A stretch of 64,000 nucleotides of DNA from Caldifarciminota bacterium. GTDB taxonomy: Bacteria > Hydrothermota > Tepidihabitantia > SM23-42. Each line of letters opens with the position of its first letter. The stretch's first letter is position 1. Made by a program: the position numbers and the translations under genes. The notes under the pieces are model-generated. The model saw only the letters and a program-made list of their open reading frames with translations, was not told the origin of the DNA and did no database searches. The stretch lies in NCBI GenBank assembly GCA_027026255.1, contig JALVOT010000006.1:62001-126000 (forward strand), given 5' to 3'. This document shows, piece after piece, positions 15,346 through 24,619 of the stretch.

Positions 15346-16167
15346 GTGGGATATCAGGAATTTTATAATTTAAAGGCGGAACCATTTACAAATCATCCTG
15401 ATCCAAAATTTTATTATGATTCACCCCAGCATGCTATTGCCCGAGAATATTTACTGCATGCGGCACGAGGAACCCGGGGACTGGCAGTTCTGCTGGGCGA
15501 GATTGGAACAGGTAAGACAACATTGGTTCGAAAGATATTGAGTGAACTCTATGCCCAGGGAAAGTATCAGGTTGGTCTTATTGTGCTGACCCATTCGGAA
15601 TTTACTCCAGCCTGGTTATACACAAGGATTGCAAACCTTATCGGTCTCAGGGATTTAGGGACTTCAACAACTGAAATCATTTCGAGGATATCCCAGCGGT
15701 TGAATGAAATCCACCATCGCAATGAAAAGACCGTAATCATAATTGATGAGGCGAATAAGATTAATGCCCCGGAAATTTTAGAGGAAATCAGAGGACTTTT
15801 GAATTTAGAGGTTGGTGATACTCGCCTGCTCTCATTTATCCTCAGTGGTCTTCCCGGTTTAGAACATTTCCTTGCTTCCAACCGGGCACTTTATCAACGG
15901 ATTGCAGTCAAGATAAAATTGAAATCGATGGATGCAGATACAGTAAGGGCGTATATTGCGCATCGTCTGAATATTGCCGGAGGAAATCATGAAATATTTA
16001 CTCCCCATGCAGTTGATCTTATCTGCCGTTATTCTGAAGGTAGACCAAGGCTTATCAACATTATTTGTGATAACGCTCTGTTAGAGGGCTATGTTCAGAA
16101 AAAATCGAAGGTTGATGAATTTGTAATTGAAAGAGTGATCAGAAATCTGGGTTTGAGGTTTGAATAA
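15346..16167 (+). CDS. ExeA/GspA-type AAA+ ATPase (first copy)
   Basis: A 273-aa P-loop ATPase: Walker A GEIGTGKTTLV, Walker B VIIIDEANKI and the conserved block EEIRGLLNLE. The N-terminal FYNLKAEPFTNHPDPKFYYDS is characteristic of ExeA-like ATPases of general secretion loci. The peptidoglycan-binding and transmembrane parts of full ExeA are missing, so it is cytosolic. The start is GTG with AGGAGG 6 nt upstream. The stop overlaps the next ATG (TAATG). It is clearly paralogous to the same-length ATPase at 18036. Confidence 0.87.
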   Translation: MGYQEFYNLKAEPFTNHPDPKFYYDSPQHAIAREYLLHAARGTRGLAVLLGEIGTGKTTLVRKILSELYAQGKYQVGLIVLTHSEFTPAWLYTRIANLIGLRDLGTSTTEIISRISQRLNEIHHRNEKTVIIIDEANKINAPEILEEIRGLLNLEVGDTRLLSFILSGLPGLEHFLASNRALYQRIAVKIKLKSMDADTVRAYIAHRLNIAGGNHEIFTPHAVDLICRYSEGRPRLINIICDNALLEGYVQKKSKVDEFVIERVIRNLGLRFE

Positions 16168-18029
16168 TGTCGGGACTCGGTGATATAAAGAGAAAGGTTG
16201 CTGAGTACGAAGCCCGGGGTAATTTGAAAAAGGCGGTTGAGGAGCTGGAAAAGGCGGTACAGACTTTTTCTCAGGAGGGGTCTTTATTTAATAAGCTGGG
16301 TGATTTGTATATCAAACTTAATCGGAAAGATGAGGCGTTGGCGATTTATGAAAGAGGTGCCAGGGTCTTTAAAGAAGAAACATATTATCCCAATGCAATC
16401 GCCCTGTGTAAAAAGATCCTGCGGCTGGATAAAAACAGGACAGAGGTCTATAAACTTCTCGGTGACCTGCATCGGGAACTGGGTCAGCGAGGCGAGGCAG
16501 CAAATTATCTGCTTCAATATGCAGATCGCAAGATGAAGGAGAATGACCTTGAGACTGCACTGGAGACCTATAATACAGTTAAAGAATTGGTGCCGAATAA
16601 TCCCAAGATATTAAAAACCATATCGGCAATCTATGAGAAGGTGGGCAGGGAAGAGAATGGAGAGGTGCTGTTAGAAGAGGCGGCGAAGATTGAGACCGAG
16701 CAGGAAAAGATTAAAGAGTCAGTGCTTGAAAAACAGGCAGAAAAGGAAACCGTTCCAGAAGAGAGACCAGAAGAAAAACCAGAGGCGAAAGCTGAAGAGA
16801 AACCAGAAGAGAAGGCTGAGGCGAAGTTAGCGGAGAAACGCGAAGAAAAAGCCGAGGAAAAGTCTATTCCGAAAGTTGAAGAAGTATCAAAAGAAGAAAA
16901 ACCAGCACCTGAACCGGAAGTAATTTCTTCTTCGATTGAAAGGGAGCTCGGGTTAAAAGAAATTGTCTTACCAGAGGCTGGTGAGTCTAAAAAAGAAGAG
17001 GTGGTGCCGGAACCCAGGGAAGAGAAACCGGGTAAAGAGGCAGTGGTTGAGGAGAAGGGTGAAACAACCGAGACGATTTCTGAGGTTGATAGGACTGCGG
17101 AACTGGGTGAGTTATATCTCAGTCTTGGTTCTGAAGAAGAGGCGATTGACTGTTTCCGGAGGGCAGCGCGCGAGGCACAGCAGCATAAGAATTTTAAACG
17201 CGCCCTGGAGTTGAATAAAAAGATTGCCGATCTCCGACCATTTGATTTAAAATCCCGGCAGCGTATGGTGGAGATCGCCAACGCGATGAATGATAAAAAA
17301 TTGAAGGTCAGTTCTTTACTTGAGCTTGCTGAATCCCTTGCCCGTCGGGATGCCAAGACCGAGGCACAGCGCCTTTATGAGGAGGTTTTGAAGATCGACC
17401 CCGAGAACCCGATTGCCAAGGAGATGCTCGCTACAATTGGAAAGTCCCGGGAATATGTTGACCTGGGTGCGGTTTTGAAGAGTGAAATTGAGGGTGGAGA
17501 GAAGACGCCGGGGCTGCAGAGTATTGATGAGCTGATTACAGAATTCCGGCGCGAGGTATTTGAATCGATCGGTGAGAGTGATTTTCGTTCCCATTATGAC
17601 CTCGGAGTAGCATATAAAGGAATGGGACTTTATCAGGAGGCGATTGAGGAGTTTGAGATTGCTGCCAAGGATGAGGAGATAAGGCTGAAGGCATATGAAA
17701 TGATTGCTTCTTGTATGCTGGAGCGGAATAAGGTTGATGATGCAATTCGTATTTTGAATGAAGGACTGAAGTTTAGTGGTCATCCCAGGTCTGAATATTT
17801 TGGTCTCTATTTTTTGCTCGGTAATTGTTATGAGCAGAAAAATGATTTTAAAAACGCCCTGCGCGCCTATGTTAATGCCTATAATATTGATAAATCGGTT
17901 CCTGATTTGATTAAAAAGATAACAAAACTTAAAGATAAGGTGACAGCACTTATAAAGAAGAAACCTGCAAAACCTCAACCCACCAAGGTACAGGTGGGCA
18001 CAAAAAAGTCGAAGATTACATATCTCTAA
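16167..18029 (+). CDS. TPR-repeat protein with charged Glu/Lys linker (second copy)
   Basis: A 620-aa protein with TPR units in residues 1 to about 175 (GNLKKAVEELEKAVQTF, NRKDEALAIYERGARVF). A long Glu/Lys/Pro repeat tract (about 180-310; units like EEKPEEKAEAKLAEK) and further TPRs (about 315-590; LGSEEEAIDCFRRAAREA, GLYQEAIEEFEIAAKD) follow, and a basic tail ends it. The layout repeats that of the 607-aa protein, indicating duplication of a TPR-ATPase pair. Both neighbours are transcriptionally coupled to it. Role unknown beyond scaffolding. Confidence 0.8.
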   Translation: MSGLGDIKRKVAEYEARGNLKKAVEELEKAVQTFSQEGSLFNKLGDLYIKLNRKDEALAIYERGARVFKEETYYPNAIALCKKILRLDKNRTEVYKLLGDLHRELGQRGEAANYLLQYADRKMKENDLETALETYNTVKELVPNNPKILKTISAIYEKVGREENGEVLLEEAAKIETEQEKIKESVLEKQAEKETVPEERPEEKPEAKAEEKPEEKAEAKLAEKREEKAEEKSIPKVEEVSKEEKPAPEPEVISSSIERELGLKEIVLPEAGESKKEEVVPEPREEKPGKEAVVEEKGETTETISEVDRTAELGELYLSLGSEEEAIDCFRRAAREAQQHKNFKRALELNKKIADLRPFDLKSRQRMVEIANAMNDKKLKVSSLLELAESLARRDAKTEAQRLYEEVLKIDPENPIAKEMLATIGKSREYVDLGAVLKSEIEGGEKTPGLQSIDELITEFRREVFESIGESDFRSHYDLGVAYKGMGLYQEAIEEFEIAAKDEEIRLKAYEMIASCMLERNKVDDAIRILNEGLKFSGHPRSEYFGLYFLLGNCYEQKNDFKNALRAYVNAYNIDKSVPDLIKKITKLKDKVTALIKKKPAKPQPTKVQVGTKKSKITYL

Positions 18030-18035
18030 TCAATT

Positions 18036-18857
18036 ATGGGATACGAAACTTTTTATGAACTGAAAGAGCATCCTTTTAGTTTTGCTGCAGATGAGAAGTT
18101 TTATTATAACTCTCCACAGCACTCGAAGGCCCTGGTCAAGCTTTCTCATGCAGTCGGAACCGAAAAGGGATTGGCTCTATTGATTGGCAATATCGGTACC
18201 GGTAAGACAACCCTTTCCCGAAGGCTTCTTGACCAGCTGATTGAAGATAATATTGAGGCGACCCTGCTCGTTATTGTCCATTCAGAGATAACATCACTGT
18301 GGTTTTTAAAGAAGGTCGCCCTGATGCTGGAGACCCCGATCGAGAGCGAAAATAAGATCGACATTATTACTGCAGTGTATCATCGTTTGATTGATTTGAA
18401 TAACAAAAACAAAAAAGTGGTAATTCTGATTGATGAGGCAAATATGCTGCAGCGTAAAGAGATTATGGAGGAGATCAGGGGACTTTTGAATTTAGAGTCG
18501 GAAAAGGGTAAACTTTTAAATTTCATCCTTTTCGGCCTTCCTGATATGGAAGATTATTTGAAATTAGACCCTCCGCTTTATCAGAGAATCGCAGTTCGCT
18601 GTGTGCTCGAACCGCTCGATGAAAGGGCGACCTATAATTATATTATTCATCGTTTAAGGGTGGCTGGTTGTGCCAGACCTCTATTTACAAAAGAGGCCCT
18701 TAAGGCGATATATATCTACTCAAAGGGTATTCCGCGAACCATTAATGCCATCTGTGATAACGGTCTTTTAGAAGGCTTCCTTTTGAAAAAAGAGATTGTG
18801 GATAGAAAAGTCATTGAGGATGTAAGTTCCGATCTTGGGCTCTCTGGCCAGGGTTGA
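18036..18857 (+). CDS. ExeA/GspA-type AAA+ ATPase (second copy)
   Basis: 273 aa, the same length as the ATPase at 15346 and alignable throughout (MGYETFYELKEHPFSF, GNIGTGKTTLSRRLL, VVILIDEANMLQRKE, EEIRGLLNLESE, PLYQRIAVRC). Walker A and B are intact, so both copies should hydrolyse ATP. ATG 18036 follows the TPR stop by 6 nt. The gene's last codons overlap the PHP gene's TTG start. Confidence 0.87.
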   Translation: MGYETFYELKEHPFSFAADEKFYYNSPQHSKALVKLSHAVGTEKGLALLIGNIGTGKTTLSRRLLDQLIEDNIEATLLVIVHSEITSLWFLKKVALMLETPIESENKIDIITAVYHRLIDLNNKNKKVVILIDEANMLQRKEIMEEIRGLLNLESEKGKLLNFILFGLPDMEDYLKLDPPLYQRIAVRCVLEPLDERATYNYIIHRLRVAGCARPLFTKEALKAIYIYSKGIPRTINAICDNGLLEGFLLKKEIVDRKVIEDVSSDLGLSGQG

Positions 18858-19720
18858 TTCAGGATAATTTGACGATTTCGAAAAAATCCTCTGAACAAGA
18901 AATTTATGCTGACCTCCATATTCATACAAATGTTTCAGATGGACTTTTGAGTCCAGAAAAGATTGCTGAGTTGTGCCACAATGTGGGACTTCACACAATC
19001 GCCATCACTGACCACGATGCGATTGATGGTATTGAACTTGCCCGGAAAGGTGGTGTGGATATTGAGGTTATTCCGGCATTGGAATTCAGTGCCAATCAGG
19101 GGACAATGGATATCCATATCCTTGCCTATCTTATTGACTATAAGAATGGCGGTTTAAAAGAATACCTCGATGATTTTTGTCAGTACCGGATGGCTCGTAT
19201 CTATAAGATTTGTAAAAATCTCACCCAGATAGATATAAAATTGGACCCTGAAGAAATCATTAAAACGGCGGGAAGTAATGCCTTAGGTCGACCCCATATC
19301 GCCCGGGCATTACTGAAGTATGGTTATGTCAATTCCATCAAGGAGGCATTTATAAAATACCTCGGTGGTCATTGTCCATATTATGTGCCCAAAAAAGAGA
19401 TACACCCCAAAGAGTTGATTAAAATGATTAGAATCTGGCAGGGGATTGCCGTTATCGCCCATCCGGGTATATTAAATAGTGATGAATTGATTCTTCGCTT
19501 GATTGAATACGGTGCCCAGGGTATTGAGGTGTGGCATCCCGAGCATAGACCATCGCAAATAAAAAAATATTATGAGATGGCAAAAGGGCATCATCTCGTT
19601 ATGACCGGAGGTTCAGACTTTCATAGTTTTCTCGGGATATATAATCAGATTGGTCAATCCGGCTGCAGTGAAAAGGAGATTGTTGCATTAAAGTCTCGAT
19701 GGACGAGTTTATATTCATAA
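18854..19720 (+). CDS. PHP-domain phosphoesterase
   Basis: A 288-aa metal-dependent phosphoesterase of the TrpH/YciV type. The PHP metal ligands are visible: DLHIHTNVSDG near residue 20, ITDHDAIDG, IPALEFSAN, AVIAHPGIL and GGSDFHS. These enzymes remove phosphate from nucleotides, pAp or 5' RNA ends; the substrate here cannot be told. TTG 18854 is taken as start because it overlaps the ATPase stop (TTGA), although a second TTG five codons later is possible. It closes the TPR/ATPase gene set. Confidence 0.82.
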   Translation: MIQDNLTISKKSSEQEIYADLHIHTNVSDGLLSPEKIAELCHNVGLHTIAITDHDAIDGIELARKGGVDIEVIPALEFSANQGTMDIHILAYLIDYKNGGLKEYLDDFCQYRMARIYKICKNLTQIDIKLDPEEIIKTAGSNALGRPHIARALLKYGYVNSIKEAFIKYLGGHCPYYVPKKEIHPKELIKMIRIWQGIAVIAHPGILNSDELILRLIEYGAQGIEVWHPEHRPSQIKKYYEMAKGHHLVMTGGSDFHSFLGIYNQIGQSGCSEKEIVALKSRWTSLYS

Positions 19721-19730
19721 AGGGGGTATT

Positions 19731-20150
19731 GTGAAGATGGATATTGAGGCAATCAAAAGAATTCTGCCTCATCGAGAACCATTCCTCTTTGTCGATGAGG
19801 TTTTAGAGATTTCCGAAGAGAGGATTGTTACAAAACGGGAAATCCGAAGAGAGGATTTCTTCTTTGCCGGGCACTTTCCTGAGGAACCGATAATGCCCGG
19901 GGTTTTGATGATTGAGGCCCTGGCTCAGAGTGGTGCGGTAATGCTTTTGCAGAATAATCCAGGGGCGATTCCCCTGTTTATGGGTATCGACCGAGCCCGT
20001 TTTCGTAAGATTGTCAGGCCCGGGGATTGTCTTGTTATGGAGGTAAAACTGCTCCAGAGCCGGGCTGGTGTAGTAAAGATAAGCGGCATCGCCCGAGTGG
20101 GTGATAGTGTAGTATGTGAGGCAACGATAATTGCGGGATTGAAAAAGTAA
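19731..20150 (+). CDS. fabZ: 3-hydroxyacyl-[ACP] dehydratase FabZ
   Basis: Dehydrates beta-hydroxyacyl-ACP in fatty-acid elongation. The hot-dog fold signatures are ILPHREPFLFVDEV and the active-site stretch GHFPEEPIMPGVLMIEALAQ (catalytic His and Glu). 139 aa is normal for the family. The GTG start at 19731 is preceded by AAGGGGG; an ATG two codons later is the alternative. It sits immediately before lpxA, linking acyl-ACP supply with lipid A synthesis. Confidence 0.92.
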   Translation: MKMDIEAIKRILPHREPFLFVDEVLEISEERIVTKREIRREDFFFAGHFPEEPIMPGVLMIEALAQSGAVMLLQNNPGAIPLFMGIDRARFRKIVRPGDCLVMEVKLLQSRAGVVKISGIARVGDSVVCEATIIAGLKK

Positions 20151-20155
20151 GATTA

Positions 20156-20920
20156 ATGAAAATTATTGCAGAGGGTGCAAAAATCGACCCGACAACCAGG
20201 ATCGGGCCATTTTCCATTATTGAGGATGGGGTGGAGATCGGGCCGAATAATATCATCGGTGCCGGTGTAATCATTAAACAGGGAACGATAATCGGTGAGG
20301 AAAATATAATCTATTCCGGGGCACAACTTGGTGTTGCACCTCAGGATTATCATTTTCAGGGTGAGGCGTCATTCTGTATTATCGGTAATCACAATATCAT
20401 CCGGGAATATGCAACGATTTCCCGTGCTACCGGAGGGGGTGAAAAGACAATAGTCGGTGATAGAAATTTTATTATGACCTATGTCCATATTGCCCATAAT
20501 GTTAAAATGGGAAATAATATTATCATCGCCAGCGGGACGCAGATTGGCGGATATGTCGAGATTGAAGATTATGCTACAATCGGCGGACTCGCCGGTATCC
20601 ATCAATTCTGTCACATCGGTAAATATGCAATGCTCGGGGCAAAATCCTATCTTAATAAAGACCTTTTACCCTATCTCCTTGCCAGTGGAAATCGAGCCTG
20701 CGTCTATGGGGTTAATACCAGGGGTATGCAGAATCATAATTTTGGATGGCCGGAAATAGATGAGATTAAAAGGCTGTTTAAGATCATCTATCAAGTAAAA
20801 AATCTTGATGAATGTAAGAAAAGATTGAATGATGAATCAGGTAATTATGCCCTTGAATTTTTAAATTTCATAAAAAAGATGAAACGGGGTCTATGTAATC
20901 TGCCCCGTTTTAAGACATAA
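20156..20920 (+). CDS. lpxA: UDP-N-acetylglucosamine acyltransferase LpxA
   Basis: First step of lipid A synthesis: transfer of a 3-hydroxyacyl chain from ACP to UDP-GlcNAc. Left-handed beta-helix hexapeptide repeats fill residues 1 to about 185. The catalytic His lies in VHIAHNVKMGNN, and the LpxA block HQFCHIGKYAMLGAKS with SGNRACVYGVNTRGM is present. 254 aa is typical. This gene supports an outer membrane with lipid A. lpxB, C, D are not in the window. Confidence 0.93.
   Translation: MKIIAEGAKIDPTTRIGPFSIIEDGVEIGPNNIIGAGVIIKQGTIIGEENIIYSGAQLGVAPQDYHFQGEASFCIIGNHNIIREYATISRATGGGEKTIVGDRNFIMTYVHIAHNVKMGNNIIIASGTQIGGYVEIEDYATIGGLAGIHQFCHIGKYAMLGAKSYLNKDLLPYLLASGNRACVYGVNTRGMQNHNFGWPEIDEIKRLFKIIYQVKNLDECKKRLNDESGNYALEFLNFIKKMKRGLCNLPRFKT
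20882..20912 (+). terminator. Possible terminator at the lpxA end
   Basis: AAACGGGG (20882-20889) pairs with CCCCGTTT (20903-20910) at the end of the lpxA reading frame. The T-tract is short. It may work in both directions between the convergent lpxA and the small basic gene. Confidence 0.35.
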
Positions 20921-20929
20921 CAAATTATT

Positions 20930-21025
20930 TTACCTTAATTTTTTCTTATGACGATCTCTTTTTCGTCTTTTCTTCAGTTTATGTTTTTTTATCTTTTTTC
21001 TTTTTCGCTTTCGACCACAGGGCAT
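20930..21025 (-). CDS. COX24/AURKAIP1 (mS38)-like small basic protein, 31 aa
   Basis: ATG at 21025 follows GGAGG with 7-nt spacing. The product begins MPCGRKRKRKKIKKHKLKKR and is almost wholly Lys/Arg. The MPCG-[KR]-KRKR...HK..KRR.R.RHKKK pattern matches the tiny bacterial proteins of the AURKAIP1/COX24 C-terminal domain family, related to mitoribosomal mS38. In that family the peptide is thought to be a small-subunit ribosomal protein (established for mS38, inferred here). It lies 27 bp after ahcY in the metK-ahcY set. Confidence 0.8.
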   Translation of the reverse strand: MPCGRKRKRKKIKKHKLKKRRKRDRHKKKLR

Positions 21026-21052
21026 ATAATTACCTCCTTTTAAATTTTATCT

Positions 21053-22294
21053 TTATGTCCCTATTTCCCAGGATGAAAGATATCGTTTCTGCTCCGGGGT
21101 GAGTTTGTCAATTTTGATTCCCAGAGACTTTAACTTCAGTCGTGCGATTTCCTGATCCAATTTCTGGGGAAGACAATAGACCCTATTTTCTAAACCGGGA
21201 TTATTCAGGATGAACTCAACGGCCAGGGCCTGATTTGCAAAGGACATATCCATTACCATTGCCGGATGTCCTTCAGCCGCAGAAAGGTTCACCAGTCTTC
21301 CCTGGGCAAGGAGATAAATCTTACGTCCGTTGCGCAGGGTATATTCCATACAGTATTTTCGGACCGGCCTTTTCTTTTTGGTGATCTTATTTAGACCCGG
21401 TTTATCAATTTCCGCATCGAAATGTCCGGCATTACCGATTATTGCACCATTCTTCATCTTCAGCATATGCTCTCGGCGAATTACATTGATGTCACCGGTA
21501 ACGGTTATAAAGATATCACCGATCTTTGCTGCTTCAATCATAGGCACCACTGTATATCCATCCATCCGTGCCTCAAGTGCCTTTACCGGATCAACTTCCG
21601 TGACAAAGACATTGGCCCCCATCCCCCTGGCGCGCATTGCCAGACCACGACCACACCAGCCGTATCCGGCAACGACAAAATTGGAACCGCTTATCAATAC
21701 ATTGGTTGCCCTCAGGATGCCGTCAATTGTCGATTGACCCGTGCCATAGCGATTGTCAAAGAAGTGTTTGGTCTGGGAATCGTTTACTGCAATGATGGGA
21801 AATCTCAAGACAGCTTTTTGCTCCATCTGTTTTAACCTTATTACTCCGGTGGTGGTTTCTTCGGTGCCGCCCAGAACGCCCGGTATCTTTTTTTTGTGCA
21901 CAGTGGAGATTAAATCTGCACCGTCGTCGATTATTATCTCAGGTCGGTTTTTTATTACCTGAGACATATTTTTATAATATTCGCGGCGCGATTCTCCTTT
22001 TACGGCAAAGACCGCAATGCCCTCACCTGCTAAGGCTGCGGCAACATCATCCTGGGTGGACAAGGGATTGGATGCAGTAAGGAAAACCCGGGCACCCCCG
22101 GCCTTTAATGTTTTTAAGAGATTTGCGGTTTCGGTTGTAACATGCAGACAGCATCCGATGCGTCTATCTTTTAAGGGTTGCTCTTGGATAAATCTTTTGC
22201 GTATTAATCTTAAGACCGGCATCATTGATTCTGCCCAGGCGATTCTTCTTTTTCCCTGGGGGGCGAGTTTTTTGTCTTTTATATTATATTTCAT
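21053..22294 (-). CDS. ahcY: Adenosylhomocysteinase
   Basis: Splits S-adenosylhomocysteine into adenosine and homocysteine, clearing the by-product of SAM-dependent methylation. Signatures: [26 protein letters not shown], the hinge [14 protein letters not shown], and the NAD-binding Rossmann loop [21 protein letters not shown]. 413 aa fits the shorter archaeal/thermophile-type enzymes. It follows metK by 12 bp with a Shine-Dalgarno, so SAM synthesis and SAH removal are co-expressed. Confidence 0.93.
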
Positions 22295-22306
22295 CTTTTC
22301 CCCTGA

Positions 22307-23452
22307 TTATTCGATGCCCAGTTCTTGCCGCAGGGGTGTCACCATATCACAGATTTCCCAGGAAAAGCCATCTTCCTCACGGCCGAAATGTCCATAACAC
22401 GCGGTGCGCCGGTAGATTGGTCGTCGGAGATTAAGCTTGTCAATAATCCCCTGGGGTGTAAAGTCAAAGAGTTTTTTCAGGGCGGAAACAATCTTTTCAT
22501 CATTAACCTTGCCGGTTTTGAATGTATCGACCGCGATTGAAGTCGGTTCGGCTACACCGATTGCATATGATAGTGAAACTTCCACCCGTTCACAGACACC
22601 GGCAGCAACAAGATTCTTTGCGACATAGCGTGCCATATATGATGCAGAGCGGTCCACCTTTGTCGGGTCCTTACCAGAAAAACAGCCGCCGCCATGATGA
22701 CCAATACTGCCATAGGTGTCAACCATAATCTTTCTTCCGGTTACACCGGTATCACCGTGCGGACCACCGATTACAAATCTACCGGTGGGATTAATCAGTA
22801 TCTTGGTGTTTTCATCAATCAATTCTTTGTCGACAATTTCATCGATGACCAGCTTCTTTAAATCGGTATGAAGTTTTTCATTGCTGACATCGGGATGGTG
22901 CTGAGCCGATAAAATAATCGTATCGATGCGCCGGGGTCGGGCGTCTTCATATTCGACTGTTACCTGACTCTTACCATCAGGGTGGAGATATTGAACAATA
23001 TTGGATTTTCTGATTTCGGTTAGCCGACGCACCAATTTGTGGGCAACCATTATAGGCAGGGGCATAAGTTCTGGTGTCTCCCGGGTTGCATATCCGTACA
23101 TCATCCCCTGGTCACCGGCGCCGCCGATATTCACTCCCAATGCGATATCGCTGGACTGTTCCTGTATTGCAGAGATTACTGCACAGGTCCGGGCGTCAAT
23201 TCCCATATCGGAATCTGTATAGCCTACTTCATATAGAAGGGCGCGAACAATTTCGGGGATTTCAACATAACAGGATGTAGATATTTCCCCGGCGACAAAG
23301 ATCATACCCCGGGTTGCCAGGGTCTCACAGGCAACCCGACCAAAAGGGTCTTTGTCTAAGATTGCGTCCAGGATTGCATCTGATACCTGGTCACAGACCT
23401 TATCGGGATGACCTTCGGTAACCGATTCTGAAGTAATAAAATATCTTGCCAT
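22307..23452 (-). CDS. metK: S-adenosylmethionine synthetase
   Basis: Makes SAM from methionine and [20 protein letters not shown], the block [17 protein letters not shown] and the glycine loop [19 protein letters not shown] are conserved. 381 aa is full length. ATG follows AAGGAGG and has its own promoter at 23469-23496. The 55-bp leader is too short to hold a SAM riboswitch. Confidence 0.95.
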
Positions 23453-23468
23453 TTGCCTCCTTTCTGGA

Positions 23469-23496
23469 ATTATAGCGAGAATTTCGTAAAAATCAA
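23469..23496 (-). promoter_or_regulatory. Promoter of metK-ahcY
   Basis: TTGATT (RC of 23491-23496), a 16-bp spacer and TATAAT (RC of 23469-23474). Transcription would begin about 10 nt upstream of the metK ATG region, which has a Shine-Dalgarno site. Confidence 0.75.
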
Positions 23497-23507
23497 GGGT
23501 GTCATAT

Positions 23508-24615
<1,108 letters not shown>

Positions 24616-24619
<4 letters not shown>

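What the first reader, a model, noticed from the sequence alone, without database searches (positions are those of the whole stretch)
20930..21025. 31-aa COX24/mS38-like ribosomal peptide
The MPCG...RHKKK peptide is easily missed in annotation, yet has a good ribosome site and family pattern related to mitoribosomal mS38. Its presence here may inform the bacterial origin of mS38.
Basis: partly seen in the sequence, partly recalled or inferred. Interest (0 to 1): 0.5.

Follow-up and report, generated by a model that had tools for sequence, protein, structure and literature searches.

The report
bS22 ribosomal mini-protein in WOR-3 bacterium
The short, very basic peptide is real and conserved, and it is almost certainly bS22, a known but often unannotated protein of the bacterial small ribosomal subunit, so it is an ordinary new member of a known family.

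Summary
The ORF exists: minus strand, 21025 to 20930, 31 aa, ATG start, AAAGGAGGT ribosome-binding site. It is a conserved gene: 54 of 60 related genomes match, and with a profile 129 of 147 genomes of the phylum, own genome included. Eight relatives encode the identical peptide although 13-18 of 31 codons differ, so selection acts on the protein. 0 of 20,000 shuffles of its residues score as high against a profile built only from other phyla. The best solved relative is Borrelia bS22 of the 30S subunit (E 1.7e-5; profile E 4.6e-8); mitoribosomal mS38 matches weakly. The right name is therefore bS22, the published bacterial counterpart of mS38. The organism belongs to candidate division WOR-3 by inference. 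Likely function, inferred from relatives: a helix in the 16S rRNA pocket of h2/h27/h44/h45 that also touches 23S rRNA. Small new points: the gene is widespread in this phylum, PF08213 misses it there, and in many loci it follows an HU gene.

The parts
20930..21025 (-). bS22 gene, 31 aa, ATG start at 21025, stop codon included
21031..21040 (-). Shine-Dalgarno sequence (AAAGGAGGTA), five bases before the ATG
   Evidence: sequence; unique in window; SD-like motif of 4 nt or more in 50 of 55 loci, background rate 0.125
21053..22294 (-). adenosylhomocysteinase gene, ends 27 nt upstream of the bS22 start; probably the same transcript (inferred)
   Evidence: Pfam PF05221 and PF00670; this neighbour is shared only with G001 of the same genus among 97 loci
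20156..20920 (+). LpxA-type acyltransferase, convergent neighbour, not part of the gene
   Evidence: Pfam PF00132 and PF13720; convergent neighbour in 22 of 55 whole-genome loci, all in the same family or order

Best explanation
This is the gene for ribosomal protein bS22 of a candidate division WOR-3 bacterium. Shown here: a conserved, selected reading frame with a strong ribosome site, sequence homology to solved bS22 chains, and a predicted single helix (residues 3-30, mean pLDDT 89). Inferred from solved relatives: the peptide sits as a basic helix in the 16S rRNA pocket formed by h2, h27, h44 and h45, reaches 23S rRNA (H67/H68) when the subunits join, and so steadies h44 near the decoding centre and adds a subunit bridge. 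Co-expression with the gene upstream is inferred from the 27-nt spacing.
For: Best PDB matches are bS22 chains: 8fmw_V (Borrelia 70S) E 1.7e-5, 7jil_5 0.0018, then 9i5v_10 (AURKAIP1/COX24 domain protein) 0.011; with profile A1: 4.6e-8, 8.4e-6, 0.001. Conservation: 55 of 61 genomes including its own, 129 of 147 in the phylum including its own. Eight relatives have an identical peptide from 8 distinct DNA sequences with 13-18 codons changed. SD-like motif of 4 nt or more in 50 of 55 loci, of 5 nt or more in 47, against background rates of 0.125 and 0.044; start ATG in 53 and GTG in 2 of 55. Single copy. Homologues in 42 named loci of a capped scan, from WOR-3, Neomarinimicrobiota, Zixiibacteriota, Latescibacterota, Edwardsbacteria, Omnitrophota, Elusimicrobia, Spirochaetes and Bacteroidetes among others. 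Shuffle control 0 of 20,000. Helix prediction. Pocket and contacts: passages of PMC10618245 and PMC10085706.
Against: PF08213 is below cut-off and there is no NCBIfam match. 18 of 147 phylum genomes have no match, 11 of them at least 90% complete and at most 5% contaminated, two of these (G004, G011) in the window's own family. One of the 18 (G057, 86% complete) is a copy cut off by a contig end. A second profile found no credible copy in the 11 fairly complete ones. The congener G001 has a frame break. No structure or proteomics of a WOR-3 ribosome was available. Very basic peptides inflate similarity scores, although the shuffles control for this.
Confidence: 0.96

Rival explanations
1. A conserved basic peptide of bS22 ancestry or look that works mainly outside the ribosome, for example as a nucleoid or antimicrobial peptide; the frequent HU neighbour hints at nucleic-acid packing.
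For: HU gene upstream in many loci; C. acnes bS22 inhibits growth of other bacteria in vitro (passages of PMC10085706).
Against: The bS22 sequence pattern is kept over the full length; in the window and in G001 the neighbour is adenosylhomocysteinase, not HU.
Confidence: 0.03
2. A chance AT-rich, lysine-rich open frame.
For: 31 aa is short, and the local DNA is A-rich on the coding strand; below the Pfam cut-off.
Against: Identical peptide with 13-18 changed codons in 8 relatives; 0 of 20,000 shuffles; only significant hit in the whole genome.
Confidence: 0.005

Closest known systems
bS22 of Borrelia burgdorferi (PDB 8fmw chain V)
   Same: MPCGRKRK start, K/R content, ungapped alignment of residues 1-28, E 1.7e-5; entry identified
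   Different: Some residues (STHKRKK against KKHKLKK) and a three-residue longer tail here than in the PDB chain; GUG start in Borrelia against ATG here
bS22 (PDB 7jil chain 5; that this entry is Flavobacterium johnsoniae is recalled, no call shows it)
   Same: Similar length and layout, residues 1-29 aligned, E 0.0018
   Different: MPSGKKRK instead of MPCGRKRK
Mitoribosomal mS38 / COX24 (PF08213)
   Same: Same ribosomal site as bS22 according to the papers; short core alignment
   Different: Weak sequence match (8a22_BC E 0.07; 8om2_1 E 2; 5mrc_11 E 2.6), Pfam cut-off not met; mS38 is longer
Actinobacterial bS22 (M. smegmatis, C. acnes)
   Same: Same pocket and function according to the papers
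   Different: The M. smegmatis entry 5O61 (named) is not among the PDB matches at E up to 10; PF08213 is over its cut-off in one of 14 control genomes (those that rang were Corynebacterium glutamicum and two archaea) but in 0 of 60 genomes of this phylum

Membership tests
Bacterial ribosomal protein bS22 | Sequence homology to a solved bS22 chain over its whole length | tested here: met
   phmmer E 1.7e-5, residues 1-28 to 1-28 of 8fmw_V; profile 4.6e-8
Bacterial ribosomal protein bS22 | About 28-33 aa with very high K+R content | tested here: met
   31 aa, 21 of 31 K/R; Borrelia 61% K/R (PMC10618245)
Bacterial ribosomal protein bS22 | Alpha-helical | tested here: met
   Prediction only: helix 3-30, mean pLDDT 89, pTM 0.45; the bend seen in solved bS22 was not assessed
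Bacterial ribosomal protein bS22 | Bound in the 16S h2/h27/h44/h45 pocket of the 30S subunit | not testable with these tools
   needs cryo-EM or 30S proteomics
COX24_C / mS38 (PF08213) | Score above the Pfam gathering cut-off (23 bits) | tested here: not met
   13.8 bits, E 0.055; 0 of 60 phylum genomes over the cut-off
COX24_C / mS38 (PF08213) | Sequence homology to solved mS38 | tested here: inconclusive
   8a22_BC E 0.07 and 0.021; 8om2_1 E 2 and 5mrc_11 E 2.6

The most novel reading that the evidence does not exclude
bS22 is an old ribosomal protein of a broad bacterial group (WOR-3, Neomarinimicrobiota, Zixiibacteriota, Latescibacterota, Omnitrophota, Elusimicrobia, Spirochaetes, Bacteroidetes), anciently linked to an HU gene and missed by PF08213-based annotation; mitochondrial mS38 and actinobacterial bS22 would be branches of the same family.
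Probability: 0.4. Interest if true: 0.35.

Novelty: new member of a known kind. Interest (0 to 1): 0.2.

Why it matters
It adds an uncultured phylum to the bS22 map and shows that current family models (PF08213 below cut-off, no NCBIfam match) miss this branch. It does not by itself settle the origin of mS38.

Tried and rejected
PF08213 and NCBIfam searches did not reach a cut-off. PF08213 on 60 genomes of the phylum gave only sub-threshold places, 14 in 13 genomes. Genomes without a match were searched again: 6 of them plus G001 with profile A1, and 11 fairly complete ones with profile A2. G057 turned out to be cut at a contig end. The short partial hits in G011 and G137 look like chance matches on inspection. 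LpxA was not found in G004, G010 and G011 at E 1e-20 (no positive control in that call), so their equivalent neighbourhood could not be inspected. No plasmid match at E 0.01. No Rfam family at gathering score in 18000-24500. Promoter and terminator patterns were uninformative. A survey of Proteobacteria for the source of mS38 could not be run and was dropped. Searches for bS22 with WOR-3 or with candidate phyla found no paper (open-licence PMC papers only).

Full report
What is there. On the minus strand from 21025 to 20930 lies a 31-aa ORF with an ATG and a strong ribosome site. It follows minus-strand genes for SAM synthetase (22307-23452) and adenosylhomocysteinase (21053-22294), the latter ending 27 nt before it. 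It converges with an lpxA-type gene (20156-20920, plus strand).

It is a gene. With the peptide alone, 55 of 61 genomes match at E up to 0.1, its own included. With a 21-row profile, 129 of 147 genomes of the phylum match at E up to 0.01. Among the 129, G136 is a contig-edge fragment (residues 1-13) and G001 a broken frame. Of the 18 misses, 11 are in genomes at least 90% complete and at most 5% contaminated, and one (G057) is a copy cut at a contig end. I extracted the gene from the 55 matching genomes. Eight relatives have exactly the same peptide encoded by eight different DNA sequences, with 13, 15, 15, 15, 17, 17, 18 and 18 of 31 codons changed and no second-position change. SD-like motifs of 4 nt or more precede 50 of 55 starts, against a background rate of 0.125 in the same loci; the 5 without are L023, L034, L036, L037 and L048.

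It is bS22. The best solved matches are ribosomal bS22 chains; 8fmw is the Borrelia 70S ribosome. A profile made only of other phyla (A2, 18 rows) finds this place in the whole genome at E 1.0e-7, the next place being at 0.13. Because such basic peptides score well by composition, I shuffled the residues 20,000 times with the start M fixed and scored them with the composition correction off: real 67.9 bits, shuffled mean 22.3, sd 3.5, maximum 46.7. PF08213 gives 13.8 bits against a cut-off of 23, and among the 18 homologues of A2 only 4 match it at E up to 1, the best at 0.29. So the Pfam family built around COX24 misses this branch.

Organism. Same-family genomes coincide with named records by position of the match: G016 (L007) with JACUUY010000053.1, G006 with CP070705.1, G018 with CP070802.1 and G020 with CP070686.1, each titled candidate division WOR-3 bacterium. 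The window's genome is placed in WOR-3 by inference from these.

Neighbourhood. The convergent lpxA neighbour is found in 22 of the 55 whole-genome loci, all in the same family or order. These are 22 of the 24 loci from those two families; the other two, L011 and L014, show none, and L014 holds only about 160 bases beyond the gene. The adenosylhomocysteinase neighbour is found only in the window and in G001 of the same genus, among 97 loci with flanks of about 1.5 to 5 kb, some of them shorter. In other families of the same class and in several other phyla the gene upstream is often HU-like: a simple motif flagged 34 of 97 loci, some of which are the same place fetched twice. Of 10 upstream ORFs that I chose from the 97 for Pfam, 9 are PF00216, five of them not flagged by the motif, and one, from Omnitrophota, is HisG. 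All 13 Omnitrophota loci show the same HisG-like C-terminal string upstream.

How it works. From passages of PMC10618245 and PMC10085706: bS22 sits in a 16S rRNA pocket of h2, h27, h44 and h45, contacts 23S H68 or H67, forms a subunit bridge, and occupies the site of mS38 and eL41. PMC6582356 (12 of 14 passages) describes mS38 as constraining h44, cites bS22 as indicating a common origin with mS38, and holds that eL41 and mS38 could be convergent. The helix prediction (residues 3-30, pLDDT 89) fits. None of this was shown for WOR-3 itself. The genome also has bS21 (67.3 bits). The papers describe bS22 together with bS21 in Borrelia and Flavobacterium, and bS22 without bS21 in M. smegmatis.

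What is known. bS22 was found in M. smegmatis (2017 paper, seen here through citations only), then Flavobacterium, C. acnes and Borrelia. [quoted passage not shown] The finding is thus a new member of a known kind.

Limits. Alphaproteobacteria were not surveyed. In the PF08213 control search of 14 genomes three rang at E up to 1 (C. glutamicum, M. jannaschii, S. acidocaldarius). Caulobacter and Bacteroides, in the control set as named (taken to be the same 14), did not ring. Since Bacteroidetes are known to hold bS22, PF08213 silence shows little. The papers were read as passages, not whole.

Noticed in passing
window 23508-24619 (-): The queuine tRNA-ribosyltransferase gene appears split into two overlapping ORFs (24008-24619 and 23508-24119) in different frames (the second has Pfam TGT profile positions 168-354; the first was not scanned). 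A frameshift or an assembly error.
   Followed up: partly
L047 (G001:C57, about 15817-15911): In the one same-genus genome (53% complete) the bS22 frame breaks after about codon 9, and residues 8-31 continue in another frame; a sequencing error and a real loss cannot be told apart.
   Followed up: partly
L022-L027, L030, L032-L038, L041, L043-L046, L048-L055, L066, L068, L070, L071, L073, L075, L078 (motif); L010, L067, L069, L072, L079 (Pfam): An HU-type gene lies just upstream of bS22 in many loci of the same class and in Neomarinimicrobiota, Zixiibacteriota and Latescibacterota; HisG takes this place in the 13 Omnitrophota loci.
   Followed up: partly
window genome C13:113064-113222 (L104): A bS21 gene is present, so bS21 and bS22 occur together in this genome.
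   Followed up: yes
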